Below are positions 1 through 39,645 of a stretch of DNA of 39,645 nucleotides, in pieces (the stretch's first letter is position 1; the number at the start of each line of letters is the position of its first letter). Source of the DNA: Exiguobacterium marinum DSM 16307 (GTDB lineage Bacteria > Bacillota > Bacilli > Exiguobacteriales > Exiguobacteriaceae); the NCBI RefSeq assembly GCF_000620845.1, contig NZ_JHZT01000004.1, positions 1-39,645 on the forward strand. The letters run 5' to 3'. The position numbers and the translations under genes were made by a program. Below the pieces are notes generated by a model that was not told the DNA's origin, ran no database searches, and was given only the letters and a program-made list of their open reading frames with translations.

Positions 1-38
1 TACAAATCTACATGTATACAAATCTACATGTATACATT
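1..38. repeat. Iteron array, left part (continues from the right end)
   Basis: Two full copies of the 16-bp unit TACAAATCTACATGTA (1-16, 17-32) are followed by a decaying half copy. Together with 39551-39645 they form one array if the molecule is circular. It lies between the partition operon and rep, so it may be the parS centromere, an origin iteron set, or both. Sharing a palindrome with the parA promoter favours the centromere. Confidence 0.85.
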
Positions 39-7387: not shown

Positions 7388-7501
7388 GAGTTTCAATCAT
7401 TAGTCAACGTGTATGAGCTCCAGGAAATAATAATCAATTCATTACCCACATCACTGATATTTTAGTTAGAATATAGCTTGTAAAGAAATGAGGTGTTTAC
7501 T

Positions 7502-22457: not shown

Positions 22458-22487
22458 TCCTCCTCCTCCTTTCCATACATCCATGAC

Positions 22488-25546: not shown

Positions 25547-25563
25547 GCACGTCACTCCTTTCT

Positions 25564-26184: not shown

Positions 26185-26185
26185 T

Positions 26186-26485: not shown

Positions 26486-26491
26486 GGGTCA

Positions 26492-28450
26492 TCACTCCTT
26501 CTTCTTCGTGTTGTCAGATTTTGGTGGCGAGGTCGGGTAGATTCGTCGCGTCTCTTCATGGTTCTGCGTGTGACGGTGCATCTGATTCTCGCGCACCTGT
26601 TCGATGACCTCAGTCTCAACATCAATCACGGTGTCCTGATGGATAGTTCGTCTGGCGCGGCCTTGACGCTTCTCTGATACCGTGTCATTTGAATCCGGTG
26701 CAGATGACGTAGATGAGTCGTTTGAATGTTGTGTTTTTTGTTGCGTCGGTGACATCGGGGCTTCTCCGGCTACCGATTCGCTTTGACGATTGTCAGGTCC
26801 GGATGCGGTATCGATGGACCCAGTGACCTGTTTGATAGGCGACGTACTAGGGCTTGGAGAATGACCAGAACTTGAATGATCGTGAATCGACTCCGGTCTT
26901 GATGTCTCCGATGATGTTGTTTGATGGTCTGGCCTACGTTCGGTATTTGATTCAGGGTTCGTCGCATGAATCGATTCTGGAGACGAAGTACGCTCTGACG
27001 TTTCTTTTAGGTGTGTAGAGTCTTGCGATTCCGGTTCTGATTCTTGACCACTGATTGGTTGCGCAACGTCCTTCGGATTTGTCGGTTTCTCTTTGTCGGT
27101 CTGCGTGCGACTTGCGGTTTGATTCTCTTGAGCGACATTGTCTGGATCAATGTGTCTCTCGGCATCCATCCGTTGTGAAGCTTGTGTTGCCACATTAGGC
27201 AGTGAGCCATTCTGAGGCACGGTGTTTGAATCCATCCGCGTCGTCGCGGCCTCATGGAGTGAGGGCATCTTTGGTGCGCCTTGTGCGGCACGCGCGACCT
27301 TCGAGACCGCGTGGGCACCGACCGAGGTCACACCTTTCCCGGCGGCATAGGCGCCGAGCGCGACACCCCAGCCCCGTTTGAGCCCGGCATCGATCCCGAA
27401 CAGCCGCTCGACCATGTTCGGCCCATCGATCAAAGCGACCGAGAAGGCGATAAGGGCGATCAGATAGGCGAATCCGTCCAACGTCTCCGCGAGATAGGCG
27501 GTCCCGATTGTGTATAGCTTGATGGAGACAAAAATCAAGATGATCACGAGGAACGTGTTTAGAATACTTTGGATGACCTTCTTCGTCTTTTGACCACTGT
27601 GCAGGTCGGCCGGTGCGACGAGAATCGCCAGGACATAGTTGAAGGCAAGCTCGAACGAGAGACGCGCCAGTTTGTAGGCGATCGAGAATAACGTGAAGCC
27701 CATGATCCCGAGCGTCACGAAGATAGTCAACCAGTTCGGCTGATAGCGGTAGTAATACTGGTTGTTCCACTCAACGCCACCTTGGTCGAGTTTACCGAGA
27801 CTTGTCTCTTTTCCGTTCCATAGAATGTAGGACTCGGCCAATTTGTTTCCGGTTGCCGATAAGTCATAGTTGTTCTTGTCGAAAATCTCATTGATTCGGA
27901 TATTATCAATCAACTCAGTCGGAATGGCATTTAATGATTCTCCTGTAGCAGCATCAAAATTTTTCGAATCGTGCTCAATCAAATCATGTACATTCCGTTT
28001 TAAGATACTCTCAGATAATGAGGCTTCCCCGTCATAAAGCGAATCTGTCCCGATTTCTGCGATTGCTTCATCAGAGAACTCCTGAATTTGGCTCATAGTT
28101 GGTGAAAGTAAACCTAAGATTAATAGTGTGATGAACAGGTTGATCAAAAAACTCTCACGTTCAAATTTCTTTTGAAAAATCAACAAGTACCCAGTGAGCA
28201 AGAAGCTTCCTGCTAAAAGAACATACAAAAAAGGTTGAATCGTAAGAACGAATTCAACCACTTGGTCATTATTGAAGAATGTATTGGTTAATAGGATTTG
28301 ATTCGTGATTGATTCAAGGCCGTCAATCAAGACTGATAGTCCTCTGACAAGAATCCATCCCATTGAGCGCAGTGCGTCATTGACCATACTACTTATTTGG
28401 AGTACATCTTCGTATTCCTGTAATTTGGTGATTAAATCGGAATCAGCCAT
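26492..28450 (-). CDS. VirB6-like polytopic membrane protein with disordered tail
   Basis: Similar to the pLS20_p028/CD3337-type transmembrane component of Gram-positive T4SS. Hydrophobic segments lie near residues 27-50, 66-90, 100-118, 240-262, 270-285, 305-325 and 330-350. A 120-residue extracellular loop (118-240) is rich in Asp/Asn. After residue 385 a tail of about 265 residues is Ser/Thr/Gln/Pro-rich and clearly disordered, ending in a basic segment. It probably forms the inner channel. Base composition of the first third is AT-richer than the rest. Confidence 0.85.
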   Translation of the reverse strand: MADSDLITKLQEYEDVLQISSMVNDALRSMGWILVRGLSVLIDGLESITNQILLTNTFFNNDQVVEFVLTIQPFLYVLLAGSFLLTGYLLIFQKKFERESFLINLFITLLILGLLSPTMSQIQEFSDEAIAEIGTDSLYDGEASLSESILKRNVHDLIEHDSKNFDAATGESLNAIPTELIDNIRINEIFDKNNYDLSATGNKLAESYILWNGKETSLGKLDQGGVEWNNQYYYRYQPNWLTIFVTLGIMGFTLFSIAYKLARLSFELAFNYVLAILVAPADLHSGQKTKKVIQSILNTFLVIILIFVSIKLYTIGTAYLAETLDGFAYLIALIAFSVALIDGPNMVERLFGIDAGLKRGWGVALGAYAAGKGVTSVGAHAVSKVARAAQGAPKMPSLHEAATTRMDSNTVPQNGSLPNVATQASQRMDAERHIDPDNVAQENQTASRTQTDKEKPTNPKDVAQPISGQESEPESQDSTHLKETSERTSSPESIHATNPESNTERRPDHQTTSSETSRPESIHDHSSSGHSPSPSTSPIKQVTGSIDTASGPDNRQSESVAGEAPMSPTQQKTQHSNDSSTSSAPDSNDTVSEKRQGRARRTIHQDTVIDVETEVIEQVRENQMHRHTQNHEETRRIYPTSPPKSDNTKKKE

Positions 28451-28465
28451 TGAAAGACCCCCAAT

Positions 28466-28882
28466 CTACTGAGTCCTAGTAAAGAAGTCTGCTAACTGTT
28501 GTTTGTAATTATCCGCCGTCAACATTCCAACATTGATTTCATCTGTGACGTTTCCATCTTGAATCGAGTATAGAACGGCACCTTTTAGTTCGTCAGTGTA
28601 TTCAAAGTTACCACGATCGACAAGTTCTTCGCCATCTGGCTGAAACGTATTATAGAGCGTGACTTGTTGACTCTCTTCGTTCGCTACCTCTTTTACGAAT
28701 TCAACGAACTCTTCGAATTCACCATCTTCTTCTTTTACAATCAGCAAATAATCATCCTCTTCGGCTGTCATGACCTTCTCAACGTGTTCAATATCACGTT
28801 GAACCAAAGACTCATTGGAATTTGAGCAAGCTCCAAGTAAAAACAAGCTGATTCCTAAAGTACCCGCAAGTAGTTTCCTCAT
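28466..28882 (-). CDS. Putative lipoprotein of the transfer operon
   Basis: 138 aa with a lipobox (LLGAC, Cys19) after a short hydrophobic leader. The mature part is very acidic (VMTAEEDDYLLIVKEEDGEFEEF) with a beta-alpha pattern. Family not recognised; small lipoproteins are common in T4SS operons and may serve at the cell surface. Confidence 0.7.
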   Translation of the reverse strand: MRKLLAGTLGISLFLLGACSNSNESLVQRDIEHVEKVMTAEEDDYLLIVKEEDGEFEEFVEFVKEVANEESQQVTLYNTFQPDGEELVDRGNFEYTDELKGAVLYSIQDGNVTDEINVGMLTADNYKQQLADFFTRTQ

Positions 28883-28898
28883 AACGTTTACCCCTCCG

Positions 28899-29141
28899 TC
28901 AGACGATTTTCCCCTTCAATAGATCCGCGACTTTCAGGTTGACGCGGAAGTCGAACTTATCTATTAGTGTAACAGTTTTCGGGGTGTCTGAGGTGTCGTC
29001 CTGATAGACGGTCAGAAAGCCATCGGTCGTCTGAATGTTGAGCACGTCGCCCCGCTCGAGGCGGACGCGCTGCGTCTCGATGATCCTCGCGACGACACGC
29101 AATTCGTTCTGGATTCGCTTCTCTCTCGCACTCTCGGCCAT
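28899..29141 (-). CDS. Small hypothetical transfer-operon protein, 80 aa
   Basis: A helical, basic N-terminus (AREKRIQNELRVVARIIETQ) is followed by a strand-rich C-terminal part. No membrane helix. It sits between the coupling-protein and lipoprotein genes, with 16-bp gaps, so it is almost surely translated within the operon. Function unknown. Confidence 0.65.
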   Translation of the reverse strand: MAESAREKRIQNELRVVARIIETQRVRLERGDVLNIQTTDGFLTVYQDDTSDTPKTVTLIDKFDFRVNLKVADLLKGKIV

Positions 29142-29157
29142 GGGTTCGGCCTCCTCT

Positions 29158-31521
29158 CTACGGTGTGCCTTGCTTCAGTTTCTCGAGTCGTTTCGCAATC
29201 ATTGTGCTCAAAAAGCTCTTCTGGCTGTCGGTGACGTCGTAAACTCCTAGGTTCAGGTTCGTCTCGAACTCGGGGAGGGACATCCCACCGATGTCATGCC
29301 CTTCGAACATCGAACGGAGGATGCTGTCCTGAAGCACGTCACGTACCGTCAAGGACGTGTCTTTCTGATTCGATGGCGCGTTGCTATCCGTCTTGTCTTC
29401 CTTCTTCGCGAAACGGACACGGATTTGCTCGAAGTCGAGACCGGCGTGACGGCAGGGGATGTCGATATCATGCAGCGAGCGGTCCGTGTCAAAGTCGTCC
29501 GCCAGGTATTCGTAGCGGTACTTCATCGCCGTCTTGCCGCTCAGGAAGATTGGATACGACTGGATGCGTCGCTTCTTCATGTCCTGACGTTTGGTGACAC
29601 GGATGATGAGCATCTCGCCTTCTTTGAGTCCCATGACCTCGGTCGCTGTCATGAGCCGACGACCGTCCACGTTCTCCGTTTTCGATTTCTTGAACGAGAA
29701 CGTTTGACCGGACCGCGATTTCGTGACGATGGTCGCCTCACCGAGCTTCTTCGAGATCAGTTCGGCGGTCGACTCGTCCGCGGTCAAGAGATAGTGCGTG
29801 TTCCCACAGTTGCCGTCGATCGTCTTCCAATCCTCTCCGTATAGGTTCTCGAGTTGGGAATAGGCTTGGATGACGAGATTGAAGCGCATGTTGCGCCCGA
29901 GACAGACGGTGATGATGTTGGCCATGCCCTCAATCGGCGGCATGTTGCCGAATTCATCGAGTAAGAAGACGACCTGACGCTCGCATTTGCCTTGTATAGT
30001 CTGCGAGGCGACCCGGGCGAGCGCCGTGTACACCTGTTTGATATAAAGGGATGCGATGACGTTGAATGTCGGGTCATAGTCCGGGACAATCAGGAACACC
30101 GCCACAGGTTGGAGTTGATGCATCACCTCACGGATTTGGATGGCACCGTCGATGGCGTAGTGGAACCTCCCACTCTCCTCGTCATGCGCTTCTAGTTGGA
30201 TCGTCGCAGTGCTTGAGTCGGTCGAGATTTGAACGGTGTTTCCAGATTGAAGCGACGACGTATGATACACGATGAAGCTGCCATCGTCATCGGTCGTGAG
30301 CGCATGGGTTGTCCCATCTGGGAATTTGAACGTGATCCGTGTCAAAGGTTCAGTCCGTCCACTGATCCAGCGGTTGAATCCGATGCGTCGCATGTCGAGC
30401 GAGTTCATCGACGTCAGTTTCCCGGTCCCGTTCAACGTGAAGATCCCGAGTTTCGCATTGGTATTGGCTAAAATACTCGCTCGTGTCTGACCACCCGAGA
30501 AGTGGAGCGTCGCGAACTGGAGCCGGGCCGGATGGTTCTCCGGGAACCGTTGAAAGAACTCGTCTAGCGCGGAGATTTCCTGTCCTTGTCGCGTCACGAC
30601 CATTCGTGAGCCGAGGTCCGAGAGCATGAGCGCGACGTTGTACATGTTGATCTTCTCCGGCGTGTCCTTCGACTCCTCGCAAAGTCCGAGGATGAGCGCC
30701 GTACACAGGTCGATTGACGAGTTGGCCCAGAACGGGTCCCGCGCCTTCGGGTCATGGTACAACATGAACGCGACCGAGCGCGCATATTGTTGGGCGAGCG
30801 AATAGTTCTCCTCGAGAAATGCGTCGATCGTCAGTTGCAACAGGTTGTACGACATCGATTGGAGCGGGTTCATCAGGTTCAACACCTCGACCTGATAGCC
30901 GCGTTGCTCGAGCGTCTCCTTCGAAGCGGCGAAAAGCTCACCTTTCGGGTCGTTGATGATCAAACTCGCCTGGTCACGCGCCCGGCTGTACAGGTCGATC
31001 GTCGAGAAGACGAACGTCTCGCCCTTCCCGGACCGGGTCGTCCCGATGACGAGGTTGTTGACGGGCGAGTCATCGATGAACAGCTCATTCTTGACCCGTC
31101 CGACGGGGACACCGCCCAATCCGTCATAGCGCTTCTTCCGGTCCGGGACGCGACGGTACTGTTGTTTCAATTCATCGAACGAGGTGAAGCGGGCGCTCCC
31201 TTTCTGATTCTTCCGCAGATCCCGGAAGTTCAGCCATACCTTGCCGAACACGACCATTCCGATGAACAGACTGGACACGATCAGCCCGATCAAGACGGTC
31301 GAAGAAGGAAGACTCACCTCCACAAACAGGGAGGGTGAGAGCGCCGGGATCGTCGCTCCGGACAACAGCCCGTCTTGTACGATTGGGGTCATGATTTGTC
31401 GAATGATATTGAAGACCCCGTTCAGCAGATAAAAAATCCCGACCGGCAACACCAACAGGCAGAACAGGGCGGGGAAGATCAAACGTATCGGAAATCGTAG
31501 TGATCGAGACAAAGTTCTCAA
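29158..31521 (-). CDS. VirD4/TrsK-type coupling protein with inserted domain
   Basis: Delivers the relaxase-DNA complex to the channel. Two N-terminal membrane helices (13-36, 74-96), Walker A GTTRSGKG (160-167), Walker B VFLLDEFGN (518-526) and the ANIITVCLGRNMRFNLVIQAYSQ region all fit the TraG/VirD4 family. At 787 aa it is longer than TrsK. Between MNSLDMRRIG (about 380) and the next core strand VAVFLIVPD (473-481) lies an extra stretch of about 90 residues, beta-rich and Thr/Ser-rich. Start is TTG, with AGGTG 7 bp upstream. Confidence 0.9.
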   Translation of the reverse strand: MRTLSRSLRFPIRLIFPALFCLLVLPVGIFYLLNGVFNIIRQIMTPIVQDGLLSGATIPALSPSLFVEVSLPSSTVLIGLIVSSLFIGMVVFGKVWLNFRDLRKNQKGSARFTSFDELKQQYRRVPDRKKRYDGLGGVPVGRVKNELFIDDSPVNNLVIGTTRSGKGETFVFSTIDLYSRARDQASLIINDPKGELFAASKETLEQRGYQVEVLNLMNPLQSMSYNLLQLTIDAFLEENYSLAQQYARSVAFMLYHDPKARDPFWANSSIDLCTALILGLCEESKDTPEKINMYNVALMLSDLGSRMVVTRQGQEISALDEFFQRFPENHPARLQFATLHFSGGQTRASILANTNAKLGIFTLNGTGKLTSMNSLDMRRIGFNRWISGRTEPLTRITFKFPDGTTHALTTDDDGSFIVYHTSSLQSGNTVQISTDSSTATIQLEAHDEESGRFHYAIDGAIQIREVMHQLQPVAVFLIVPDYDPTFNVIASLYIKQVYTALARVASQTIQGKCERQVVFLLDEFGNMPPIEGMANIITVCLGRNMRFNLVIQAYSQLENLYGEDWKTIDGNCGNTHYLLTADESTAELISKKLGEATIVTKSRSGQTFSFKKSKTENVDGRRLMTATEVMGLKEGEMLIIRVTKRQDMKKRRIQSYPIFLSGKTAMKYRYEYLADDFDTDRSLHDIDIPCRHAGLDFEQIRVRFAKKEDKTDSNAPSNQKDTSLTVRDVLQDSILRSMFEGHDIGGMSLPEFETNLNLGVYDVTDSQKSFLSTMIAKRLEKLKQGTP

Positions 31522-31535
31522 TTATTTCACCTACC

Positions 31536-32636
31536 TTAATCGGAATAAAGAATCGTTTGCAGTTTAACTTCTTCTGCAGCGATAGCGGCTTGAATCTTCT
31601 CACGGGCCGAAGTGTCCTTGCTAGAGGTTTTCTTCAGTTTCTCGTTCAGTTTGTCGATTGCGGCCATGCTGTCTTGATAGTTGTCCACTTTTTCTTGTAC
31701 GGCAGTGTCGTTCGTCTTAGACGCCCACCCCTTTGCGGACTCGATATCTCCAAGATAGAGATAGGCGGTCACTTTTGCCGAGATGCGAGGAGCGGTCCAT
31801 TCCACGTCATCCGTCTTGGCCACGGTTTCATGGTCCCGTTCTAGTGCGGCAATATCGAACACGCCCTCATCGGTGGGGTGTGACGCTTGGAAGTCCTGGA
31901 GCCGTTCCAATTTTTCCTTATCGGATAACTCTAGCCCGACCAGCTTCGTCTCGATCAGGATGGGGTCATCCGTGAGCTCGAGCGCCTTCTGGTCTTTTCC
32001 TTCCGCCAGATAGAGGTCGATCAATAGGGCATCCTCTTCCTCGGACCGATCTTTTCGTTCCAGTAAATTGATTAATGAGGCTTCCTCACCTTGGAGCGCT
32101 TGGTCGTAAGCATCTAGCCACACCTGTTCGCCCCCGGTTACCTGCTCAGCGTGCGCCTCTTTATCGATAAACCATTGGGTGGCAGTGAACAACGATGTGA
32201 AGAGAATCCCGGCTGTGGCCGCCCCGTAGATGAGGCGGCGTTGCAGGCGGTTCAAGCGTGACTGATAGGTCGACGAGACAGTCGTGATTTGTCTAACGGA
32301 TTGGCGCTTATAGTCGTCCGGGGTCTCAGTCTCAATCTCGTCGAGGAGCCACATCTTCTTCGCGTTGTCCTCCTTCTTCGTTCGAATCCGTTGCACCCGG
32401 TCCTGCACTTGATGATACAGGTTCGGATAGGTCCCTCCGGTCCCGAACGTGAACGTCCCCCGATATAGCAGTTCGTCTTTCTGGTCGAAGAGCCGGAAGT
32501 CACCGGAACAGCTCGTCCCTTCGCTACTGAGCGCATGATGCAGGTCATGTGTCGCGACGACGGCCTCGGCGAAAGTAAACCGCTCATAGTTCTGGATCCG
32601 TGTGTCCGGGACGTCGGTGAATCGTACAAACAGCAT
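31536..32636 (-). CDS. Bitopic transfer protein with EssB-like layout
   Basis: 366 aa. A cytoplasmic N-terminal domain (1-130, with beta-strand pairs and a glycine turn TFTFGTGG) leads to one membrane helix (about 135-155). An extracytoplasmic helical domain of 210 residues with TPR-like helices follows, rich in Glu/Lys. The layout recalls EssB/YukC of type VII secretion, but I see no kinase motifs and do not claim homology. It lies between the pilin and the coupling protein, just after an internal terminator. Confidence 0.6.
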   Translation of the reverse strand: MLFVRFTDVPDTRIQNYERFTFAEAVVATHDLHHALSSEGTSCSGDFRLFDQKDELLYRGTFTFGTGGTYPNLYHQVQDRVQRIRTKKEDNAKKMWLLDEIETETPDDYKRQSVRQITTVSSTYQSRLNRLQRRLIYGAATAGILFTSLFTATQWFIDKEAHAEQVTGGEQVWLDAYDQALQGEEASLINLLERKDRSEEEDALLIDLYLAEGKDQKALELTDDPILIETKLVGLELSDKEKLERLQDFQASHPTDEGVFDIAALERDHETVAKTDDVEWTAPRISAKVTAYLYLGDIESAKGWASKTNDTAVQEKVDNYQDSMAAIDKLNEKLKKTSSKDTSAREKIQAAIAAEEVKLQTILYSD

Positions 32637-32663
32637 CTCCTTCCTCCTCTCGTTTCAAGTAAC

Positions 32664-32689
32664 AAAAAAAGCCTTCCGATTGGAACGCT
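32664..32689 (-). terminator. Intrinsic terminator inside the transfer operon
   Basis: On the minus strand AGCGTTCC, loop AATC, GGAAGGCT (8 bp, one mismatch) is followed by seven U. It lies between the pilin gene and the 366-aa gene in the middle of an otherwise unbroken operon. Confidence 0.75.
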
Positions 32690-32702
32690 GCGTGAATTTG
32701 CA

Positions 32703-32927
32703 TTAGAATTTGATATTCTGGTCGACCATCTCGGCGAGCGTGAACGCGCCCATGACGATGATCAGACCGACGGCGCCCCCGACAAGCCAGCCGACGGCCT
32801 TCGAGCGTCCGCGGTCCCCGCCGAAGATGAAGTAGAAGCCCCCGATGGCGAAAGCGATGGCTGCGGCGATGACGGCGAGTCCTTGGAAGAACTGAAGCAA
32901 GCTGAGTCCTGTCTCATTGAGTCCCAT
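32703..32927 (-). CDS. VirB2/TrbC-like pilin subunit
   Basis: 74 aa with two membrane helices (about 12-36 and 47-65) joined by a short basic loop GGDRGRSK, the typical two-helix build of VirB2/TrbC pilins without a cleaved leader. It is near the head of the transfer operon and followed by a terminator, which would raise its expression above downstream genes. Confidence 0.75.
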   Translation of the reverse strand: MGLNETGLSLLQFFQGLAVIAAAIAFAIGGFYFIFGGDRGRSKAVGWLVGGAVGLIIVMGAFTLAEMVDQNIKF

Positions 32928-32939
32928 GTCGTTCCCTCC

Positions 32940-33122
32940 TTAGTCCTGGTGCGCCGGTGACTTGAAGCTGAGTTTCGCTTCGAGCGCCTCCAAAATGAGT
33001 TCCTGGTTGTCCTGGATGACTTGTTGATGTTGCTCGTCGAGCCACTCCTCATAGTCCTTCCCACGGATGCGTAAGAGTTTCTCAGCGAAGCTACGGTTCT
33101 GTTTCTGTTCTTTTGATGCCAC
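32940..33122 (-). CDS. Small charged protein, 60 aa, head of the transfer operon
   Basis: GTG 33122 follows GGAAGGAAG by 8 bp. The protein is helical and charged (SFAEKLLRIRGKDYEEWLDE), with no membrane segment. The frame stays open further upstream, but that part is the structured leader. It is a candidate small regulatory partner for operon read-through; this is speculation from position and size. Confidence 0.6.
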   Translation of the reverse strand: MASKEQKQNRSFAEKLLRIRGKDYEEWLDEQHQQVIQDNQELILEALEAKLSFKSPAHQD

Positions 33123-33154
33123 AGTACACACTTCCTTCCCTTGATCTCTTGATG

Positions 33155-33411
33155 TGCAGCAGCACATCATTAAGGACAGTCGGATTCGGTGCGGTGGGTT
33201 TCTAGCCGTTCCCCCACGAACTCTGCTCCTCGCTGAGATGAGAAGCTGTACAGGGTTTTTCGATGACCCGGAACGATGAGGTGACCTTGTGGCGAGTTTT
33301 AGGCGACTCTCGCCGAACCATCTGTGCGTAGATCCCACCCACCCGGTCACTGGTGAGGGACACGCCGGTATGTGATTGGAGGAGACCATCCTTAAGGATG
33401 TGCTGCTGCGT
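33155..33411 (-). ncRNA. Structured leader RNA of the transfer operon
   Basis: About 300 bp between the XRE gene and the 60-aa gene has no good coding frame. Two inverted copies of a 26-bp element (33155-33180 and 33385-33410, a few mismatches, each with the core GCAGCAGCACATC) would pair across it, enclosing some 200 nt of GC-rich sequence with further local stems. One end also holds the palindrome CATCCTTAAGGATG. An RNA scaffold for antitermination or attenuation is the most economical reading. Confidence 0.5.
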
Positions 33412-33420
33412 CGATGTCGG

Positions 33421-33909
33421 TTACTGGCGGACTCTTTTCCGCTTCTTGACGTGGATGAGTTCGTCATCCGGGTTCTTTCGCTTGGCGAGCACATGGGCGT
33501 CACAGACGACCGTACGGATCCGGTAGTAGAGTTGCGTCAACTGGATCGTCTCGCCGCTCGCCTTCTCGATGCCGATGAAACCGTGCAGTTCATACGTCTT
33601 ACCGTCGAACGTGCGAACCGAGTCGGCCTGCGGCAACTCCTTCAGGTCGAACCGACGTCGCTCGAGCTTGGTGACGGAGCGCTTCGCCCCGTAGCCGAAG
33701 TCGATGGCGTCCCACGGCACCGTCGCGAGCGTATGTCCGAACGCACGGGCCATGTGATCGATGTCGGCAATCGACGGCACCGAGCGATTCTGTTCATACT
33801 GACTGATAGCGGGTTGCGAGATCTCCCCGAATGTCTTTTCTGATAGTTCGATCTGTGACCAGCCTGAAAGCCGACGGTTCTCCTTCAACCACTCCCCGAA
33901 TCGATACAT
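33421..33909 (-). CDS. XRE-family regulator at the head of the transfer operon
   Basis: 162 aa. Residues 1-65 form an XRE helix-turn-helix (FGEWLKENRRLSGWSQIELSE, then ISQPAISQYEQNRSVPSIADI). The C-terminal half is basic and ends KKRKRVRQ. It is probably the repressor or switch of the conjugation operon. About 90 bp upstream lies a pair of overlapping inverted repeats that could be its operator. Confidence 0.8.
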   Translation of the reverse strand: MYRFGEWLKENRRLSGWSQIELSEKTFGEISQPAISQYEQNRSVPSIADIDHMARAFGHTLATVPWDAIDFGYGAKRSVTKLERRRFDLKELPQADSVRTFDGKTYELHGFIGIEKASGETIQLTQLYYRIRTVVCDAHVLAKRKNPDDELIHVKKRKRVRQ

Positions 33910-33998
33910 AAGCCTTCCCCTTTCTGTAAACCAGAGCGGCGACCAAACAGATGTTTCCTTTTGTTGGTTCCAATATAGCAGGAGTAGGAATAAAAATC

Positions 33999-34020
33999 AT
34001 CAGTTTTCTGATATGTCAGA
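33999..34020. promoter_or_regulatory. Overlapping inverted repeats, operator candidate
   Basis: ATCAG-TTTT-CTGAT (33999-34012) overlaps TCTGA-TATG-TCAGA (34007-34020). A TATATT at 33973-33978, read on the minus strand, could be the -10 of the transfer-operon promoter, so a protein bound here would cover its upstream region. Confidence 0.5.
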
Positions 34021-34252
34021 AATTTTACATTTGACGATTCTTGTCGAATCCGCTCTGTACAAGGGATGAAGAGCAACAGTAACTCAATATTTTCGGTTTT
34101 GTAGCACAACTGTAAAAAAATAAAGCTTTGAGTATAGAAAATAATGACAATTATTTTGATTTCAAGAGATTATGGTAGGGTAGAGGAATAGAAGACTTCA
34201 TAAAGAATAAGTGATGAAGAGAGTACTTGGATCGTGGGGTGAGGAAGTGGAG

Positions 34253-34468
34253 TTGAACGAGGCAATCATCGAGCGGATGAAGGAGCTCGCAGCGGAACGG
34301 AATATGACCATCCATCAAGTGATTCAAAAAGGTGGATTGAATCAAGCTACGATTTCAGAGCTGATGAGCGGACGAACAAAACATCCGAAGGTAAGTACAA
34401 TTCAGAAGTTTTGTGATGGTCTAAATATCAATCTAAATGATTTCTTTAATGATCAAAGATTTACTTGA
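34253..34468 (+). CDS. Small XRE (Cro-like) DNA-binding protein
   Basis: A 71-aa helix-turn-helix protein: ERMKELAAERNMTIHQVIQ, then LNQATISELMSGRTKHPKVSTIQKFCDGLNI. It is divergent from the transfer-operon regulator, an arrangement like CI/Cro switches. The start is uncertain: TTG 34253 is best spaced from GTGAGG, while GTG 34247 and GTG 34211 are in frame. It shares the 33910-34210 control region. Confidence 0.7.
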   Translation: MNEAIIERMKELAAERNMTIHQVIQKGGLNQATISELMSGRTKHPKVSTIQKFCDGLNINLNDFFNDQRFT

Positions 34469-34483
34469 GTTTATCCATAAACC

Positions 34484-34529
34484 AAAAGAGTCAAAGATAC
34501 TCGGATGTGAGGCTATCTTTGACTCTTTT
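34484..34529. terminator. Bidirectional terminator
   Basis: A perfect 16-bp stem (34484-34499 with 34514-34529) with A- and T-runs at its outer ends separates the Cro-like gene from the convergent protease gene. Confidence 0.9.
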
Positions 34530-34548
34530 CATATGCCTATTTCAATAG

Positions 34549-35457
34549 TTAATCCACTGCTCTTAATGTTTTTTCTGCATTTAAAATTATACCTGATTTA
34601 TTATTTATTTCTATTTGACTGCCATTGCGCTTCATTAACTCTAGAATTTCTTTAGAATCTAGATCTGGTTTTTTTGATTTGAGTACAGAAATAAAAGCTG
34701 TGACCAGAGGTGCTGTTGCAGAACTTCCAGTGAAATAAGTTAGACCATTGTCTGAGGACTTAGTAGTCAGTAAATCAGAACCAGATGCAAAAATATCGAT
34801 GTTATCGATATTAGGTGTATCAACTACACGTCTATTGTTATCGACTGCTCCGACGCCGATAACACCTTCATAGGAAATAGGATAATAGTCAAGTGATGGA
34901 TCATTATTTTCAGCGGCTGCTACAACAATTATATTTTTATCTATAGCAGATTTGATTGCATTTTCTAGCTCAATGGTATTTTTAGGTGTAGCTAAGCTTA
35001 TATTGATGATGTCTACATTTTTTGAAACAGCCGTATTAATGGCTTTAGCTAATTGTTCAGACGTCATACCCATGTCAGTTCCAGCCTGAATAGACAATAT
35101 AGAGGTATTTGGTATAAGGCCCCCAGGTGTCGTGTGTCCATTTCCTGTACTTACTAAAATACCGCCTACCATGGTTCCATGCATTTGTTGGGAAAGACCT
35201 TGGTTACTCTCTAAATATTCTTGATTAATTTTTGCATCTTTTAAAAATTTATTAGTTGTATTTATACCGGTATCAATCACTGCAATTTTTAAATCAATTG
35301 ATTGTGTATGGGGAAAAATATCTTGTGCATTTATGGTTTTAAGCGTTTCCCCATATAAGCCCTTGTTTTTAAAATTATTATAATACTCTGTACCCATAAA
35401 AATAAGCGTTGAGAGTGCTATTACAAGCAACATATAGTTAAAGATTTTTTTTTTCAT
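34549..35457 (-). CDS. Membrane-anchored subtilisin-like (S8) serine protease
   Basis: 302 aa. An N-terminal membrane helix (5-22) places the protease outside the cell. The S8 triad is complete: D62 in AVIDTG, H93 in MHGTMVGG, S246 in GSSATAP (canonical GTSMAAP), with oxyanion Asn184 in AAENN. There is almost no propeptide. It is AT-rich and divergent from a small regulator with a strong operator array. Beside a bacteriocin-like precursor it may process that peptide, as proteases do in lantibiotic loci; that link is inferred. Confidence 0.88.
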   Translation of the reverse strand: MKKKIFNYMLLVIALSTLIFMGTEYYNNFKNKGLYGETLKTINAQDIFPHTQSIDLKIAVIDTGINTTNKFLKDAKINQEYLESNQGLSQQMHGTMVGGILVSTGNGHTTPGGLIPNTSILSIQAGTDMGMTSEQLAKAINTAVSKNVDIINISLATPKNTIELENAIKSAIDKNIIVVAAAENNDPSLDYYPISYEGVIGVGAVDNNRRVVDTPNIDNIDIFASGSDLLTTKSSDNGLTYFTGSSATAPLVTAFISVLKSKKPDLDSKEILELMKRNGSQIEINNKSGIILNAEKTLRAVD

Positions 35458-35476
35458 AGATTGACCTTCTCCCTTA

Positions 35477-35524
35477 GTAAAGTTACCTTTACGTAAAGTA
35501 AGCTTTACGTAAAGGTAACTTTAC
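35477..35524. promoter_or_regulatory. Three tandem GTAAAG-N4-CTTTAC operators
   Basis: The 48 bp consist of exactly three contiguous 16-bp palindromes, GTAAAG-TTAC-CTTTAC, GTAAAG-TAAG-CTTTAC and GTAAAG-GTAA-CTTTAC, giving a perfect inverted repeat overall. A TATAAT at 35527-35532 has its -35 (TTTACG, 35504-35509, 17-bp spacer) inside the array, so a bound repressor would block the rightward promoter and very likely the leftward one. Confidence 0.85.
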
Positions 35525-35575
35525 TGTATAATTCTTATTAGAGCAATGAAGTTGAAACGAAAAGAGGTGAAATTA

Positions 35576-35785
35576 TTGTTAAACAGGTTAGCAGAAGTTA
35601 GAGGAAGTTTTAATTGTTCTCAAGAACAATTAGCGTCTGATCTTAAAGTGTCGCGTCAAACAATCATTTCTATTGAAAAAGGTCGATATAACCCCTCACT
35701 GCCCCTTGCTTTAAAAATTGCTAAAAAATTCAATTTACATGTAGAAGATATTTTCATTATCGAGGAGGACAACGATGATTTATAG
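35576..35785 (+). CDS. Small XRE regulator of the bacteriocin-like module
   Basis: A 69-aa helix-turn-helix protein (QEQLASDLKVSRQTIISIEKG, then a second half NPSLPLALKIAKKFNLHVEDIF) of the compact type often paired with a small membrane protein. TTG 35576 follows AGAGGTG by 6 bp and gives the usual family length; ATG 35546 in the same frame has no such site. It overlaps the membrane-protein start. Likely binds the tandem operators just upstream. Confidence 0.8.
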   Translation: MLNRLAEVRGSFNCSQEQLASDLKVSRQTIISIEKGRYNPSLPLALKIAKKFNLHVEDIFIIEEDNDDL

Positions 35786-36152
35786 AAAATTATATTTAGG
35801 ATTAGGGGTATTTTTCTCCTTATCTACAATCTTGTTATTGTCATTCAGCGTATTTAGTAAAACATCTGATTTAGGTATGGCATTTTTGTCACAGCTCTCT
35901 CTTGCTTTAATTTCTTTGACCATGTGGCACTTATACCCAGAAATGAAAGAAAATGATGAAAGAATTAAAAATATTAAACGAAAAATGCTTTCTATTTTAA
36001 GTGTGACACTAACTGTTCTTATTTTAATTCTTTTCACATGGATGACTTTTTTTGAATTACCTTTTAAAGCTTCCGATGTTTTAAATATAGTTCTCTTTTT
36101 AATTGTTTTAGTTGCAACTTCCACTTTAGTTTTTTTATCAAAAAGATATTAA
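35775..36152 (+). CDS. Four-TM membrane protein, immunity or sensor candidate
   Basis: 125 aa with four hydrophobic helices (about 8-27, 36-54, 72-92, 99-119) and a charged loop EMKENDERIKNIKRK. The gene overlaps the XRE gene by 11 bp, with GAGGAGG upstream of its start. Regulator plus small membrane partner recalls SdpR/SdpI, where the membrane protein confers immunity and senses toxin. No sequence relation to SdpI is evident, so this is analogy only. Confidence 0.65.
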   Translation: MIYRKLYLGLGVFFSLSTILLLSFSVFSKTSDLGMAFLSQLSLALISLTMWHLYPEMKENDERIKNIKRKMLSILSVTLTVLILILFTWMTFFELPFKASDVLNIVLFLIVLVATSTLVFLSKRY

Positions 36153-36183
36153 AAAAGCTTTCTATTTTATAGAAAGCTTTTTT
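36151..36183. terminator. Bidirectional terminator
   Basis: A perfect 14-bp stem (36151-36164 with 36170-36183) with A and T runs lies between convergent genes and overlaps the stop of the membrane protein. Confidence 0.9.
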
Positions 36184-36186
36184 TTA

Positions 36187-36882
36187 TTATGATTTTGCTT
36201 TTGCGATGCAGTATCCCCAGTTGAATCCTGAGATTGCTGCTGCTCCTGAAAGACATGCGATACATCCAGCGCCTGCAGTGATTACACAAGCTCCTCCACA
36301 AATAACACCGATAGTAGATGCAGTAGCCCAGCTAATTCCTAAGTCATTAGTCATACATTTTTTGAATTTTGACCATGACCATTGTGGCTGTACATCTGGC
36401 TTCACTAAAGTTTGATCAATGGTTTTGTTACCTTCAGACCATACCTGAAGCGATGCATTTTCTTCATCAATATGTTTGAGGTTGATTTCATATACTGAGA
36501 TGATTTTTAAATCTGAGTCTAAAACGAATGAAACACTGCTAATTGCTTCGAAATTTGAGCTTTCGCTTACAACATACTGGACAAAAAAGTTTCCATTATC
36601 CAAAGACAATGCTTTGACATTTTCTGAATCTAAATCTTTAGTTTTTAGACCGCGTAATTCTTTATTCAATTGTTTTTTAGTTGCCTTTACTAAATTACTT
36701 TCTAAATCTGAGGATACAGAACTAGTTGTGTCTTCAAAGTTAGAAATTGCCTCTTCAATACCTGGAGTGACTGAAGTGTTATCCTGTGCAGAAACTGAAG
36801 AAGAGAACCCGGAGAAAACCAGTGTAAGGGCCATAGTCATGAGGAAAATGAGTTTGACCGTTTTATCAAAATTGAGTGTCAT
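36187..36882 (-). CDS. Secreted bacteriocin-like precursor with Cys/Gly-rich C-terminus
   Basis: 231 aa. A signal peptide (1-32, ending SVSA) is followed by a soluble domain (33-165) with no cysteine. A C-terminal segment of about 60 residues begins at WSWSKFKKC. It is hydrophobic and Gly/Ala-rich and contains all six cysteines (176, 195, 199, 207, 210, 225). This layout, secreted precursor plus hydrophobic Cys-rich peptide, resembles halocin C8 and, without the cysteines, SdpC. The neighbours are an S8 protease, a regulator and a four-TM protein. I think it is a bacteriocin precursor but cannot assign a class. AAAGGACG lies 9-10 bp before the start. Confidence 0.65.
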   Translation of the reverse strand: MTLNFDKTVKLIFLMTMALTLVFSGFSSSVSAQDNTSVTPGIEEAISNFEDTTSSVSSDLESNLVKATKKQLNKELRGLKTKDLDSENVKALSLDNGNFFVQYVVSESSNFEAISSVSFVLDSDLKIISVYEINLKHIDEENASLQVWSEGNKTIDQTLVKPDVQPQWSWSKFKKCMTNDLGISWATASTIGVICGGACVITAGAGCIACLSGAAAISGFNWGYCIAKAKS

Positions 36883-36906
36883 CTTAGAAATACGTCCTTT
36901 TTTATT

Positions 36907-36918
36907 CTTAACGTTAAG
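36907..36918. promoter_or_regulatory. Palindrome CTTAACGTTAAG upstream of the precursor gene
   Basis: A perfect 12-bp palindrome lies 25 bp upstream of the bacteriocin-like gene. It could bind a regulator, but it is not the GTAAAG motif of the neighbouring operators. Confidence 0.3.
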
Positions 36919-37072
36919 ACTGTGATATTTGTACTAGCTAGGTACATCTGTATACTAACAAAGGGATTATCATTAAAAAATGGTTATATAATACCAATTT
37001 TCAATAATAACCCCTATAATGTGATGGAAATTAAATAAATAACATAAAAATATATTATGATGTAAATTAAAG

Positions 37073-37303
37073 CTATTTAATATCTTTTATTTTATAGCGA
37101 TTTATAGCCTTTCTATACATTTCATGTGTTTTTCCGTCAATACAGTTTGTTTCGTATAAAAAATTCACTTCTTGAACGAGTAAGTCTATGGTTTCAAATT
37201 CTTTTTTAAAGATATTTCTCTTGATTCCTGAATTTGTTTGTTCTAAACAAATGTAATTGCCATCTCTTTTTTTAGCAACACCGTTGTGTAAGAAGATTGA
37301 GAG
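37073..37303 (-). pseudogene. C-terminal remnant of an unknown gene
   Basis: An open frame of 76 codons runs on the minus strand from just after a TAA (37304-37306) to a TAG at 37073-37075. It has protein-like composition (FLHNGVAKKRDGNYICLEQ, then helical Lys/Glu-rich sequence) but no start codon near its beginning. It is probably the tail of a gene lost by rearrangement. Family not recognised. Confidence 0.45.
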
Positions 37304-37404
37304 TTAATGTAGGATGTCAAGCAAATAGTTAACAATACAACACTACTTATTACTTGAGTTAAGTGTATAGGGCGAATAAGTGCTATATGTGAACTTATAA
37401 CGTC

Positions 37405-38049
37405 TTATAAATTTTCGAATGAAACATTAAATAACGAAACTGAAAGTGAATACATAAAAAGGTTTACAAGATTCAATATTTCTCCAACTATAAATGGAAT
37501 AAACGAAGTATTTTCAATCTCTATTTTGGTTCCGATTAAGCATAGAGTGGTCAAATAGGAGAAAAATATTATTTCAATTAAGCTGTTTAAAGCTAAATTT
37601 GCTCTGTTTCGTTTAGTTAAGTTTGATTTTTTATCAATTTCTTTATCATGAAGGTCTGTATAAAAGGAATAACATATTTCCACAGATCGCATTAAAAGTC
37701 GTATAAAAATTAATACGAACATAAGGTCCAAGAAATTTTGAAAAACTGATAAAGGCAAGACTTCCCAAACAACTACAAGTGATTTTGTTATTAAATAAGC
37801 AATCAGAAAAACTATGAGTGTCCAAACAGCTATATACAAATTATCTTTATTTCTATTGGATATGTAATTTGCTCGAGCATCTTTCATCTGCTCTACTGGG
37901 AGAACACAGTTTGATATTAACTTATTAAACTCAGAAATATCTTGTTTTTTCGAAATGTATTCTAAAAATGTGAGGAGATTTTTACTTTCGGTCAGTGACC
38001 CAGAATTTTTAAGAAGATAATAGTTTATGTCACTTTCAGATCGATACAT
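37405..38049 (-). CDS. Membrane protein, unknown function
   Basis: 214 aa. A soluble N-terminal part (about 1-70) is followed by hydrophobic helices near 72-90, 100-125, 155-175 and 185-205, with a charged loop (DLHDKEIDKKSNLTKRNRAN) between the pairs. AT-rich, without a good Shine-Dalgarno sequence; ATG 38049 is chosen over TTG 38055. It is divergent from parA. Like the 266-aa membrane protein at 1805-2605 it lies in the AT-rich flank of the replication/partition region. Role unknown. Confidence 0.6.
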   Translation of the reverse strand: MYRSESDINYYLLKNSGSLTESKNLLTFLEYISKKQDISEFNKLISNCVLPVEQMKDARANYISNRNKDNLYIAVWTLIVFLIAYLITKSLVVVWEVLPLSVFQNFLDLMFVLIFIRLLMRSVEICYSFYTDLHDKEIDKKSNLTKRNRANLALNSLIEIIFFSYLTTLCLIGTKIEIENTSFIPFIVGEILNLVNLFMYSLSVSLFNVSFENL

Positions 38050-38090
38050 ATACAATTCTTTAGGATTAAAGGGAAAGATGAAAATACACT

Positions 38091-38104
38091 TGTATACATG
38101 TATA
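38091..38104. promoter_or_regulatory. Partition-protein operator GTATACATGTATAC
   Basis: This 14-bp palindrome upstream of parA is identical to 39551-39564 at the edge of the iteron array, and both continue into ACAAAT-type sequence. The RHH partition protein probably binds both places and represses its own operon. Confidence 0.65.
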
Positions 38105-38159
38105 CAAATGGAGAAAAGTTTGATACGTTGAACTTACAAATAAAAAAGGAGGCACTAAA

Positions 38160-39008
38160 ATGACCAATCAGCTTGATCTCTCACAGCAAGAAGCGATTGT
38201 TGTGACGTTCGGAAACTTTAAAGGCGGCACGGGAAAGACGACAAATAGTACGATGCTCGCTTATGCACTGGCCAAGAAAGGCTATCGTGTGTTGCTCTGT
38301 GACCAAGATCCGCAGGCGAACGCTACTACCTTGTTCTTGAAGACAAAGGCTGCACGAGAAGATGATTACATAACCTTCGAAAAGACATTGATGGCAGCAA
38401 TGCAAGAAGGCGATTTAAGTAGCATCGTCACAGAAGTTACGGACAATCTGTTCCTACTACCTTCATTCAGTGATTTCGCGCAGTACCCGAAGTTTCTTGA
38501 GAAAAAGTTTGAGAAAGAAGTGGACCGAGTGACGTATCTGTCTACTTTACTTGAACCTCTGAAGAGCGAGTTCGATTTCATTTTTGTGGACGTTCCTCCG
38601 ACTATCTCCATCTATACTGACTCTGCCCTCTATGCCTCTGATTTCGTTGTCGTTGTACTTCAGACACAGGAACGAAGCTTGCAGGGAGCCGAGGTGTTTA
38701 CACAGTACCTGCAGACATTGCTGGATGACTATGGTGCTGATTTTGATATTCTTGGAATCCTACCGGTTCTTCTCAAAAATGGTGCAGCCGTAGATATGGC
38801 AACGCTTGAAAATGCCAAGAATGTATTCGGATCGCACAACCTTTTTGAAGGCGTGATCAAGAACATGGAGCGTTTGAAGCGATATGATATCACTGGAATC
38901 GTCGAGGAAGATATGCACGACAAACGTGTCATGGAGACATATGCAAAAGTTGCAGAGGAGTTCTTAAACCGTCTCGAAGCAGAAATGAATTACGTGGAAC
39001 AGGGGTGA
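38160..39008 (+). CDS. parA: ParA-type partition ATPase
   Basis: 282-aa Walker-type ATPase that moves plasmid copies apart. The deviant Walker A KGGTGKTT is at residues 21-28, with switch/Walker A' DQDPQANAT (48-56) and Walker B FIFVDVPPT. There is almost no N-terminal extension, so it belongs to the short ParA class that relies on a separate ribbon-helix-helix partner. AAGGAGG lies 9 bp before the start. The stop overlaps the alternative GTG start of the next gene. Confidence 0.93.
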   Translation: MTNQLDLSQQEAIVVTFGNFKGGTGKTTNSTMLAYALAKKGYRVLLCDQDPQANATTLFLKTKAAREDDYITFEKTLMAAMQEGDLSSIVTEVTDNLFLLPSFSDFAQYPKFLEKKFEKEVDRVTYLSTLLEPLKSEFDFIFVDVPPTISIYTDSALYASDFVVVVLQTQERSLQGAEVFTQYLQTLLDDYGADFDILGILPVLLKNGAAVDMATLENAKNVFGSHNLFEGVIKNMERLKRYDITGIVEEDMHDKRVMETYAKVAEEFLNRLEAEMNYVEQG

Positions 39009-39013
39009 ATAAT

Positions 39014-39379
39014 ATGTCAGATTTGATTCAAAAACCAGCGAAAAAGCGGTTGCTGGACCGTAAGGGTGCAGCGGCGCCGCAACAAACATATAAAGCTGAA
39101 GTATCTGAAGACAAAACAGTGGAATCGAAAGCTACTGTTCAGAAAGAAACTTCAAACAAACGATCAGCCAAGAACTCCGTCAACATGGGTTCAAGCACTG
39201 TTCGTGTATCGAACCTCACAAAAAACAAATTGTCAGCGTTAGTGACGATGGGCAAAGCGGATTCGGCAGATGCGATTATTTCTACGATGATTGACGAGTA
39301 TCTGGAGCTATTCTCTTCCAATGAGAGAAAAGAATATGAACTGATTCGAGACGTTTTGATGATGAAGCATAGTAAATAA
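39014..39379 (+). CDS. RHH centromere-binding partition protein
   Basis: 121 aa. A long flexible basic N-terminus (1-60) could stimulate the ParA ATPase. The C-terminal 60 residues form a ribbon-helix-helix: STVRVSNLTKNKLSALVTMG, then ADAIISTMIDEYLELF. It plays the role of ParB/ParG. ATG 39014 is preferred, with GGGG 8 bp upstream; GTG 39005 is in frame and overlaps the parA stop. Its likely target is the array starting 170 bp downstream. Confidence 0.85.
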   Translation: MSDLIQKPAKKRLLDRKGAAAPQQTYKAEVSEDKTVESKATVQKETSNKRSAKNSVNMGSSTVRVSNLTKNKLSALVTMGKADSADAIISTMIDEYLELFSSNERKEYELIRDVLMMKHSK

Positions 39380-39419
39380 AAAAGGCAGTCCATAATGAAC
39401 TGAGCCTTAGATATTGATG

Positions 39420-39456
39420 AACGAGCATGCTCCAGTAGAGCATGCTCGTTTTTTAT
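39420..39456 (+). terminator. Terminator of the partition operon
   Basis: A perfect 13-bp stem (39420-39432 with 39438-39450) is followed by T-rich sequence. Confidence 0.9.
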
Positions 39457-39550
39457 GTGACGACAATTCATCTAAATATTTTTAAGGTATACTCCTTTGC
39501 TGGATATTCAGCCACGTTGATCTAACAAAGATAGATATTCAAAAAAAACG

Positions 39551-39645
39551 GTATACATGTATACGCGTATACAAATCTACATGTATACAAATATACATGT
39601 ATGCAAAACTACATGTATACAAATCTACATGTATACAAATCTACA
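39551..39645. repeat. Iteron/centromere array, right part
   Basis: The palindrome GTATACATGTATAC (39551-39564) is followed by 16-bp units at 39570, 39586, 39602 and 39618, the middle two slightly diverged, and a 12-bp partial unit to the end. The last 28 bases equal bases 1-28. The array is probably parS for the adjacent RHH protein and may also serve the origin. Confidence 0.9.

What the first reader, a model, noticed from the sequence alone, without database searches (positions are those of the whole stretch)
34549..36882. Possible new bacteriocin locus: precursor, S8 protease, regulator and four-TM partner
The precursor has a signal peptide, a Cys-free proregion of 130 residues and a C-terminal Cys6, Gly/Ala-rich hydrophobic peptide. 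The neighbours suit processing, control and immunity. It recalls halocin C8 (whose proregion is the immunity protein) and the SdpC/SdpR/SdpI logic, but matches neither. The module is AT-rich and flanked by terminators, and it looks self-contained.
Basis: partly seen in the sequence, partly recalled or inferred. Interest (0 to 1): 0.7.

Follow-up and report, generated by a model that had tools for sequence, protein, structure and literature searches.

The report
Plasmid-borne secreted bacteriocin-like peptide cassette
A plasmid of an Exiguobacterium-type bacterium carries a small gene cassette that probably makes a secreted, disulfide-stapled killer peptide together with a self-protection protein, its control switch and a possible activating enzyme; the peptide belongs to a scattered, unnamed family of Gram-positive bacteria and their phages.

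Summary
At 34549-36882 lie a 231-residue precursor with a signal peptide and six Cys in its last 56 residues, an S8 protease, an Xre regulator and a membrane protein. They sit in a 3.7-kb AT-rich segment (34420-38090) that two sister Exiguobacterium plasmids replace with other DNA. The precursor belongs to a real, unnamed family: 19 of 398 genomes of the class (own genome included), plasmids, SPbeta-like phages, with near-invariant Cys6. It does not match the halocin C8 model. 16 of 30 family loci have a small two-TM protein just downstream (control 6 of 200). The window's membrane protein recurs downstream of the precursor in two other loci; elsewhere it forms autonomous Xre-4TM pairs with a conserved operator. 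In the window that operator also abuts the S8 gene. The S8 is not a family trait (0 of 26 other loci examined), but similar S8 proteases sit beside a different secreted pro-toxin family (SAR2788) in Exiguobacteriaceae.
Most likely: a Sec-exported, disulfide-bonded bacteriocin freed from its proregion (perhaps by the S8), with the 4TM as immunity and Xre as repressor. No activity is shown. New variant of a known kind.

The parts
34420..38090 (.). cargo segment (about 3.67 kb) between the conjugation-side HTH gene and parA
   Evidence: blastn: backbone matches pEspB at 21041-34419 and 38091-39645 (about 91%), pE52 up to 34413 and from 38087; pEspB has 743 bp and pE52 3519 bp of other DNA in the slot
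34484..34529 (.). inverted repeat, two 16-bp arms 14 nt apart, terminator-like, at the downstream end of the S8 gene
   Evidence: I16; not listed by the terminator scan
34549..35457 (-). S8 (subtilase) serine protease P0002, 302 aa, N-terminal membrane segment, no long propeptide; proposed activating protease
   Evidence: PF00082 E 3.4e-32; motifs; one N-terminal hydrophobic segment
35476..35525 (.). operator: three tandem 16-bp units GTAAAG-N4-CTTTAC (35477-35524) within a 23-bp perfect inverted repeat, between the divergent S8 and Xre genes
   Evidence: same kind of unit upstream of Xre-4TM pairs in other genera
35546..35785 (+). Xre-type (HTH_3) repressor P0003, 79 aa
   Evidence: PF01381 E 1.4e-13; close relatives next to P0004 homologs
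35775..36152 (+). membrane protein P0004, 125 aa, proposed immunity protein
   Evidence: family member is the next annotated gene downstream of the precursor in pFL5 (E 8.5e-24) and lies 231 bp downstream of it in G247 (E 5e-11)
36151..36183 (.). possible bidirectional terminator between the 4TM gene and the precursor
   Evidence: number of such sites not above shuffles
36187..36882 (-). preproprotein P0001, 231 aa: signal peptide, Cys-free proregion, C-terminal Cys6 peptide
36787..36882 (-). signal peptide, residues 1-32 (SPase I-like site SVSA|QD, read by eye)
   Evidence: sequence
36190..36390 (-). proposed mature peptide region, residues 165-231 (start of mature peptide not known)
   Evidence: Cys positions and conservation
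36907..36918 (.). 12-bp dyad CTTAACGTTAAG upstream of the precursor; weak resemblance to the operator, noticed post hoc
   Evidence: not a match to the 16-bp operator unit
37405..38055 (-). membrane protein P0006, 216 aa, four hydrophobic segments, unknown role; alternative immunity candidate
   Evidence: no Pfam family over its cut-off and no NCBIfam match, no plasmid relative at E<=0.01

Best explanation
The cassette makes and handles a secreted bacteriocin. P0001 is exported by Sec. The six Cys of its C-terminal ~60-residue hydrophobic, cationic domain are oxidised to three disulfides outside the cell. A cut between the proregion and residue ~165-175 frees the active peptide, which acts on the membrane of competitors. 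In this plasmid the cut is most likely made by the co-encoded, membrane-anchored S8 protease P0002. P0004 protects the producer. P0003 represses its own gene, P0004 and, through the shared divergent operator, the S8 gene, so that protection and activation rise together. Shown here by sequence comparison: gene family, conserved Cys, physical linkage of a membrane partner, conserved operator, cargo status. Inferred: export, disulfides, killing, immunity, cleavage by P0002, binding of P0003 and its control of S8.
For: Family with six Cys conserved across genera. Downstream small two-TM ORF in 16 of 30 loci against 6 of 200 control genes, Fisher 4e-12, not corrected for related loci; about 8 groups by eye. 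In B. velezensis pDMB05-1 the precursor is decayed but the two-TM gene is intact, as expected for immunity (L029). A profile of the P0004 family built without them finds the next annotated gene downstream of the precursor in pFL5 (where no P0003-like Xre was found) and a gene 231 bp downstream of it in G247; the family is rare: 9 of 199 other genomes of the class at E<=1e-6. Thiol-oxidoreductase genes next to the precursor in pFL5 (thioredoxin plus DsbB), L. brevis (thioredoxin) and G217 (glutaredoxin). Mobile setting: SPbeta-like phages, 5.7- and 9.2-kb plasmids. Operator conserved across genera; its inverted repeat begins 18 nt from the S8 start codon, so the S8 promoter should overlap or lie beyond it (inference). 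Similar S8 proteases near SAR2788-type pro-toxins in five of the six best Exiguobacteriaceae loci. Published precedent: an extracellular serine protease (HlyR4) frees the C-terminal active part of halocin H4, and the HalC8 protease is unidentified (PMC12893001, abstract and passages).
Against: No S8 in any of 26 other precursor loci, and P0002 falls outside the SAR2788-partner S8 clade, though on a long branch. Xre-4TM pairs are mostly far from any precursor, so P0004 may do something else, and tblastn with P0004 found no plasmid match at E<=0.1. The 4TM operon is convergent with the precursor, and the 16-bp operator is not upstream of the precursor. 14 of 30 loci have no two-TM ORF by my criterion, the window among them. 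No thiol-oxidoreductase family was matched by the cassette proteins. Only the window's own genome, 1 of 19 of the genus, has the precursor. No activity data.
Confidence: 0.55

Rival explanations
1. The precursor is a bacteriocin, but the S8 protease and the Xre-4TM pair are an unrelated neighbouring module; maturation uses general extracellular proteases, as it presumably does in family members without an S8.
For: 0 of 26 other loci have the S8; Xre-4TM pairs are autonomous elsewhere; the operator is at the S8/Xre promoter, not at the precursor.
Against: A P0004-family gene recurs downstream of the precursor in two other loci; all genes sit in one segment replaced as a block in two sister plasmids; S8 plus secreted pro-toxin pairs exist in the same bacterial family.
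Confidence: 0.27
2. Halocin C8-like self-immunity: the proregion itself is the immunity protein and P0004 is only a sensor for the repressor.
For: The precursor has a long proregion, as in halocin C8 (PMC11509114 passages); pBP6000 carries a precursor on a 5.7-kb plasmid with few other genes; the window and 13 other loci lack the two-TM ORF.
Against: No match to the halocin C8 domain; 16 of 30 loci carry a separate small membrane protein, and pBP6000 too has a 59-aa two-TM ORF on the other strand upstream.
Confidence: 0.08
3. The secreted Cys6 peptide is not a weapon but a signal, adhesin or surface component, and the membrane partners are sensors.
For: I know of no tested member; the annotated relatives that I opened read 'hypothetical protein'.
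Against: Patchy occurrence on phages and plasmids, adjacent small membrane proteins, intact partner beside a decayed precursor (L029), hydrophobic cationic Cys6 core.
Confidence: 0.1

Closest known systems
Halocin C8 (HalC8/ProC8; NCBIfam TIGR04449)
   Same: Exported precursor with a long proregion and a C-terminal peptide freed by proteolysis; activating protease of HalC8 unidentified (passages).
   Different: No match to TIGR04449; Sec-type rather than Tat signal; separate membrane partner genes; six Cys (HalC8's count of ten is recalled, from no call).
SDP/YIT cannibalism toxins (SdpC with SdpAB, SdpR, SdpI; PMC6818787, passages)
   Same: Signal peptide plus hydrophobic toxin cut from the C-terminal part of a ~200-residue precursor; autorepressed regulator plus integral membrane immunity protein.
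   Different: No SdpA- or SdpB-like gene among the cassette ORFs by Pfam/NCBIfam names; regulator is Xre type; Cys6 core.
SAR2788 family putative toxins (NCBIfam NF038340) with a neighbouring S8 protease
   Same: Secreted two-domain precursor near a small membrane-anchored S8 protease on Exiguobacterium and other plasmids.
   Different: P0001 scores 10.7 bits against a cut-off of 50; profile comparison gives 20% probability; tips are larger and poor in Cys, with soluble immunity-like partners; P0002 lies outside their S8 clade.
PHROG 33667 (unknown function, SPbeta-like phage proteins)
   Same: P0001 matches along 34-229 of 231 (E 1.6e-5) and the plaBV1 relative matches along its whole length.
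   Different: No function assigned; the Goe14 copy has a two-TM partner and no P0002-like S8 in the 10.7-kb stretch read.
Sublancin 168 of SPbeta (PMC8270828 passages)
   Same: Prophage-borne bacteriocin whose disulfides are made by BdbA/BdbB, with an immunity protein SunI.
   Different: Sublancin is a glycocin exported by SunT with leader cleavage; this family has a signal peptide and a long proregion.

Membership tests
Halocin C8 domain family | C-terminal match to TIGR04449 (halocin_C8_dom) | tested here: not met
   P0001 and four relatives: no hit at E<=1 (filters drop most matches above 0.1); 0 of 19 genus genomes at E<=1; in 22 genomes that hold family members, 5 weak matches at E<=5, none at a precursor
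Halocin C8 domain family | Tat export | tested here: not met
   No twin Arg in MTLNFDKTVK... (by eye); Tat for ProC8 from PMC11509114 (passage)
Halocin C8 domain family | Proregion acts as immunity protein | not testable with these tools
   needs a protection assay
SDP/SdpC system | SdpC-like precursor with SdpA/SdpB and SdpI/SdpR relatives | tested here: inconclusive
   No Sdp-named family for P0001-P0006 in Pfam or NCBIfam; presence of models for every Sdp protein not checked
SAR2788 family (NF038340) | Score over the curated cut-off (50 bits) | tested here: not met
   10.7 bits, E 0.34; hhalign probability 20%
SAR2788 family (NF038340) | Partner S8 protease of the same clade | tested here: not met
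   Six SAR2788-partner S8 form a clade (100/98); P0002 outside it, on a long branch whose place is unsure
Xre-4TM pair with GTAAAG-N4-CTTnAC operator | P0003-like Xre adjacent to P0004-like membrane protein | tested here: met
   Window; 4 of 4 loci and 6 of 9 further loci, two of which are one inverted place
Xre-4TM pair with GTAAAG-N4-CTTnAC operator | Operator upstream of the Xre gene | tested here: met
   3 exact units in window, 0.12 expected with one mismatch allowed; unit present in 3 of 4 loci and 5 of 9 loci
Unnamed Cys6 precursor family (with PHROG 33667) | Secreted precursor with C-terminal C-x(14-20)-C-x3-C-x(5-11)-C-x2-C-x(14-17)-C (spacings by eye) | tested here: met
   21 of 27 precursors aligned: five Cys in 21 of 21, sixth in 20 of 21
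Bacteriocin (functional class) | Inhibits other bacteria; producer immune | not testable with these tools
   no assay possible

The most novel reading that the evidence does not exclude
A pan-Gram-positive class of Sec-exported, prodomain-caged, three-disulfide bacteriocins spread by SPbeta-like phages and plasmids, with exchangeable membrane immunity proteins (two-TM or four-TM) and, in this Exiguobacterium-type plasmid, a dedicated S8 activating protease brought under the same operator as immunity, so that the producer switches on protection and activation together.
Probability: 0.38. Interest if true: 0.75.

Novelty: new variant of a known kind. Interest (0 to 1): 0.55.

Why it matters
If right, a recurrent but unnamed secreted family (19 of 398 sampled genomes of the class) becomes a testable new bacteriocin class with named immunity candidates. 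The window would supply a protease gene physically paired with a precursor, which is what is missing for halocin C8. It would also suggest a function (immunity) and an operator for the Xre-4TM pairs found alone in chromosomes of several Bacilli genera.

Tried and rejected
Halocin C8 membership was tested with TIGR04449 and rejected; a direct profile-profile comparison was not possible because no halocin C8 sequence was obtained (searches found no such records).

Homology of the proregion to SAR2788 pro-toxins: rejected as unproven.

P0002 as a member of the SAR2788 S8 clade: rejected. Its nearest tree neighbour (G204) joins on long branches with weak support.

A shared operator at the precursor: the 12-bp dyad at 36907 was found with a pattern made after seeing it; with two mismatches allowed the pattern gives 8 matches against 5.1 expected, and it is not a copy of the 16-bp unit. 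I do not rely on it.

Promoter-like sites in 34000-38200: 16 against 19.2 expected, so not used.

Viral contigs: 0 relatives of P0001 by peptide patterns. Genome contigs with P0002: 3 distant S8 hits, not used. Plasmids with P0004 and P0006: no match. Solved structures: nothing significant, best E 0.15. G152 and G516 membrane neighbours are not P0004 relatives. One weak precursor-profile hit beside an Xre-4TM pair (L146, E 0.0025, 10.9 bits) is a 101-residue lipoprotein-like ORF and was taken as chance.

Base rates are rough: the recurrence of P0004 in 2 of 29 other loci was noticed first and tested afterwards, and related loci were not collapsed in the Fisher test.
Full report
What is there. 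The window is the whole 39,645-base contig C1 of a two-contig, 2.81-Mb genome. It is a plasmid: it has conjugation genes (VirD4-like coupling protein, a TraG-type ATPase, MobL relaxase), and 18000-39645 matches 17 plasmid records, all Exiguobacterium, the best at about 91% over up to 76% of the query. The ends of the window match one tandem-repeat stretch in pEspB and in pE52, which fits a circle.

The four ORFs of the finding are real in position and reading frame. P0001 (36187-36882, -) has a signal peptide, a proregion without Cys and six Cys at 176-225. P0002 (34549-35457, -) is a 302-residue S8 protease with the usual motifs and an N-terminal membrane segment. P0003 (35546-35785, +) is an Xre-type HTH protein and P0004 (35775-36152, +) a small membrane protein.

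Cargo status. Backbone homology to pEspB runs 21041-34419 and resumes at 38091; pE52 gives 34413 and 38087. The slot holds 743 bp in pEspB, and a 735-residue protein plus a RelE/AbrB pair in pE52. In an E. mexicanum plasmid the homology stops at 34453 and DUF262 and HEPN proteins follow; its right border was not in the stretch read. In the stretches fetched from these three plasmids, phmmer at E<=1e-4 found only P0005 of P0001-P0006. So the cassette is one of several exchangeable loads, and it is larger than the finding: it includes P0006 (37405-38055) and a possible remnant ORF.

The precursor family. P0001 has no match over a curated cut-off in Pfam or NCBIfam; PHROG 33667, function unknown, matches at 1.6e-5. 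tblastn at E<=1 found six plasmid records (four Bacillus, one Streptomyces, one Terribacillus) and, at E<=0.1, three SPbeta-like phages. A profile found the family in 1 of 19 genomes of the genus and 19 of 398 of the class, the window's own genome counted in both. With a wider profile it was found in 9 of 398 of the phylum, own genome included; three of these nine are near the threshold of 0.001, and the G022 match is a 79-residue ORF without the Cys part. Of 27 precursors collected, 21 were aligned: five Cys occur in 21 of 21 and the sixth in 20 of 21. The six left out were one near-duplicate (L038), one decayed copy (L029) and four short ones (L044-L047); of those L047 lacks two of the Cys (by eye). 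Rows were found with a profile that already contained these Cys, so the conservation is partly selected.

The partner. On the same strand and within 200 nt downstream, 16 of 30 precursor loci have a 40-95-residue ORF with at least two hydrophobic segments (Kyte-Doolittle, 19 residues, 1.6); 6 of 200 other ORFs of at least 150 residues in the same loci do. Nine of these small ORFs fall into two similarity groups of four and five; the rest were not grouped, so exchange of partners is likely. The B. velezensis locus L029 keeps an intact partner beside a decayed precursor. The window has no such small ORF. In its place P0004 stands convergent to the precursor. A profile of P0004 and four chromosomal homologs found, among 1097 ORFs of the 30 loci, only P0004 itself, the next annotated gene downstream of the pFL5 precursor (E 8.5e-24) and a gene 231 bp downstream of the G247 precursor (E 5e-11). 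The family is rare: 9 of 199 other genomes of the class at E<=1e-6, with a profile that by then included the pFL5 and G247 proteins. tblastn with P0004 alone missed the pFL5 gene. I read this as evidence that P0004 is the cognate partner, with immunity the most likely role.

The regulator. One search gave 11 genomes besides the window's own with a P0004 match; four are full-length homologs and seven are partial matches in a 787-residue frame. All four full-length ones have a P0003-like Xre beside them, and none of the four has a precursor or P0002-like S8 within about 4 kb. Of nine more loci, two of them one inverted place, six have the Xre. The unit GTAAAG-N4-CTTnAC, tandem in several, lies upstream of the Xre in 3 of 4 and is present in 5 of 9 loci. 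The window has three exact tandem copies at 35477-35524, against 0.12 expected with one mismatch allowed. This is a phylogenetically supported operator; that P0003 binds it is inferred. Its inverted repeat starts 18 nt from the S8 start codon, so repression of S8 by P0003 would follow. pFL5 has the 4TM without a P0003-like Xre, so the membrane protein can serve without the regulator.

The protease. No P0002 relative was found among ORFs of 26 other precursor loci at E<=1; the four loci fetched later (L119-L122) were not searched for it. So S8 cleavage is not a defining part of the family. The link in the window rests on position, on the shared operator and on an analogy: in Exiguobacterium sp. 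Helios and A. pseudofirmus OF4 plasmids a similar S8 directly precedes a SAR2788 family putative toxin. In Exiguobacteriaceae 21 of 38 genomes match the SAR2788 model at E<=0.01, but only 4 over its cut-off. I opened the six best places: five have an S8 nearby (G220, read as the Helios plasmid from identical coordinates; G012; G382; and truncated S8-like ORFs in the near-identical loci of G262 and G070), G340 has none. The G382 and G340 toxin hits are below the cut-off, and the other weak hits were not opened. In G270 a second toxin tip and second immunity-like ORF follow (by eye), the layout of polymorphic toxins. But the six SAR2788-partner S8 in the tree form their own clade without P0002, and their pro-toxins are not detectably related to P0001.

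Thiol chemistry. pFL5 has a thioredoxin and a DsbB gene upstream of the precursor, L. brevis a thioredoxin downstream, and G217 a glutaredoxin upstream. Two loci from outside the class (G557, G696) have four-segment proteins with CxxC that Pfam does not name. This favours disulfides in the mature peptide. The window cassette has no recognised gene of that kind.

Literature. No account of this family was met in ten searches; they used related names (halocin C8, SAR2788, SPbeta, SDP and others), since the family has none, and cover only the held open-access library. The mBio 2026 paper PMC12893001 (abstract and passages) reports extracellular serine proteases freeing antimicrobial fragments from haloarchaeal precursors and states that the HalC8 protease is unidentified.

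Verdict. A real, mobile, bacteriocin-like cassette. The precursor and membrane-partner part is well supported by comparison. The S8 as activator is plausible and unproven. It works like halocin C8 or SDP in outline; it fails the halocin C8 model, and nothing here makes it an SDP system.

Noticed in passing
window 1-36 and 39551-39645: The two ends of the contig match the same tandem repeats (16-bp steps) in pEspB and pE52, so the contig is probably a circular plasmid cut within its iterons.
   Followed up: partly
window 6932-8845: Vsr-type endonuclease next to a C-5 cytosine methylase.
   Followed up: no
window 17255-18691: ArdC N-terminal plus M78 (IrrE-like) metallopeptidase protein at the edge of the conjugation block; possible anti-restriction protein.
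   Followed up: no
window 14423-15265: Metallo-beta-lactamase-fold protein with a signal-like N terminus; 14365-15479 is 84% identical to a stretch of the E. mexicanum plasmid with a gene annotated ComEC/Rec2 family; the Helios plasmid has a gene of that name too.
   Followed up: no
window 37094-37300: Short open stretch upstream of the precursor that looks like the end of a decayed gene; Pfam gives only weak hits.
   Followed up: partly
L027 4983-5902; L002 5995-6914: SPbeta-like phage Goe14 and B. velezensis plasmid plaBV1 carry the Cys6 precursor with a 54-residue two-TM protein overlapping its stop codon; tblastn finds the precursor in Goe11 and Goe13 as well.
   Followed up: partly
L029 5998-6335: B. 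velezensis pDMB05-1 has a decayed precursor beside an intact two-TM gene, as expected of a kept immunity gene.
   Followed up: partly
L074 3727-7034: G270: S8 protease, secreted pro-toxin, immunity-like ORF, then an orphan toxin tip and a second immunity-like ORF: a polymorphic toxin layout with a neighbouring S8.
   Followed up: partly
L105 2657-5845: G012: SAR2788 toxin and partner, an Xre protein with its own hydrophobic segment, and an S8 in one locus; a second case in the genus of S8 plus Xre plus membrane element.
   Followed up: partly
L145, L147, L149, L150, L151, L129, L130, L134: Autonomous Xre-4TM pairs with the operator unit GTAAAG-N4-CTTnAC in several genera of the class; function unknown.
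   Followed up: partly
L154, L155, L156 beside the HTH gene (P0005): The plasmid slot is a cargo site: a small membrane ORF (pEspB), a RelE/AbrB pair with a large protein (pE52), or DUF262 plus HEPN proteins (E. mexicanum; right border not seen).
   Followed up: yes
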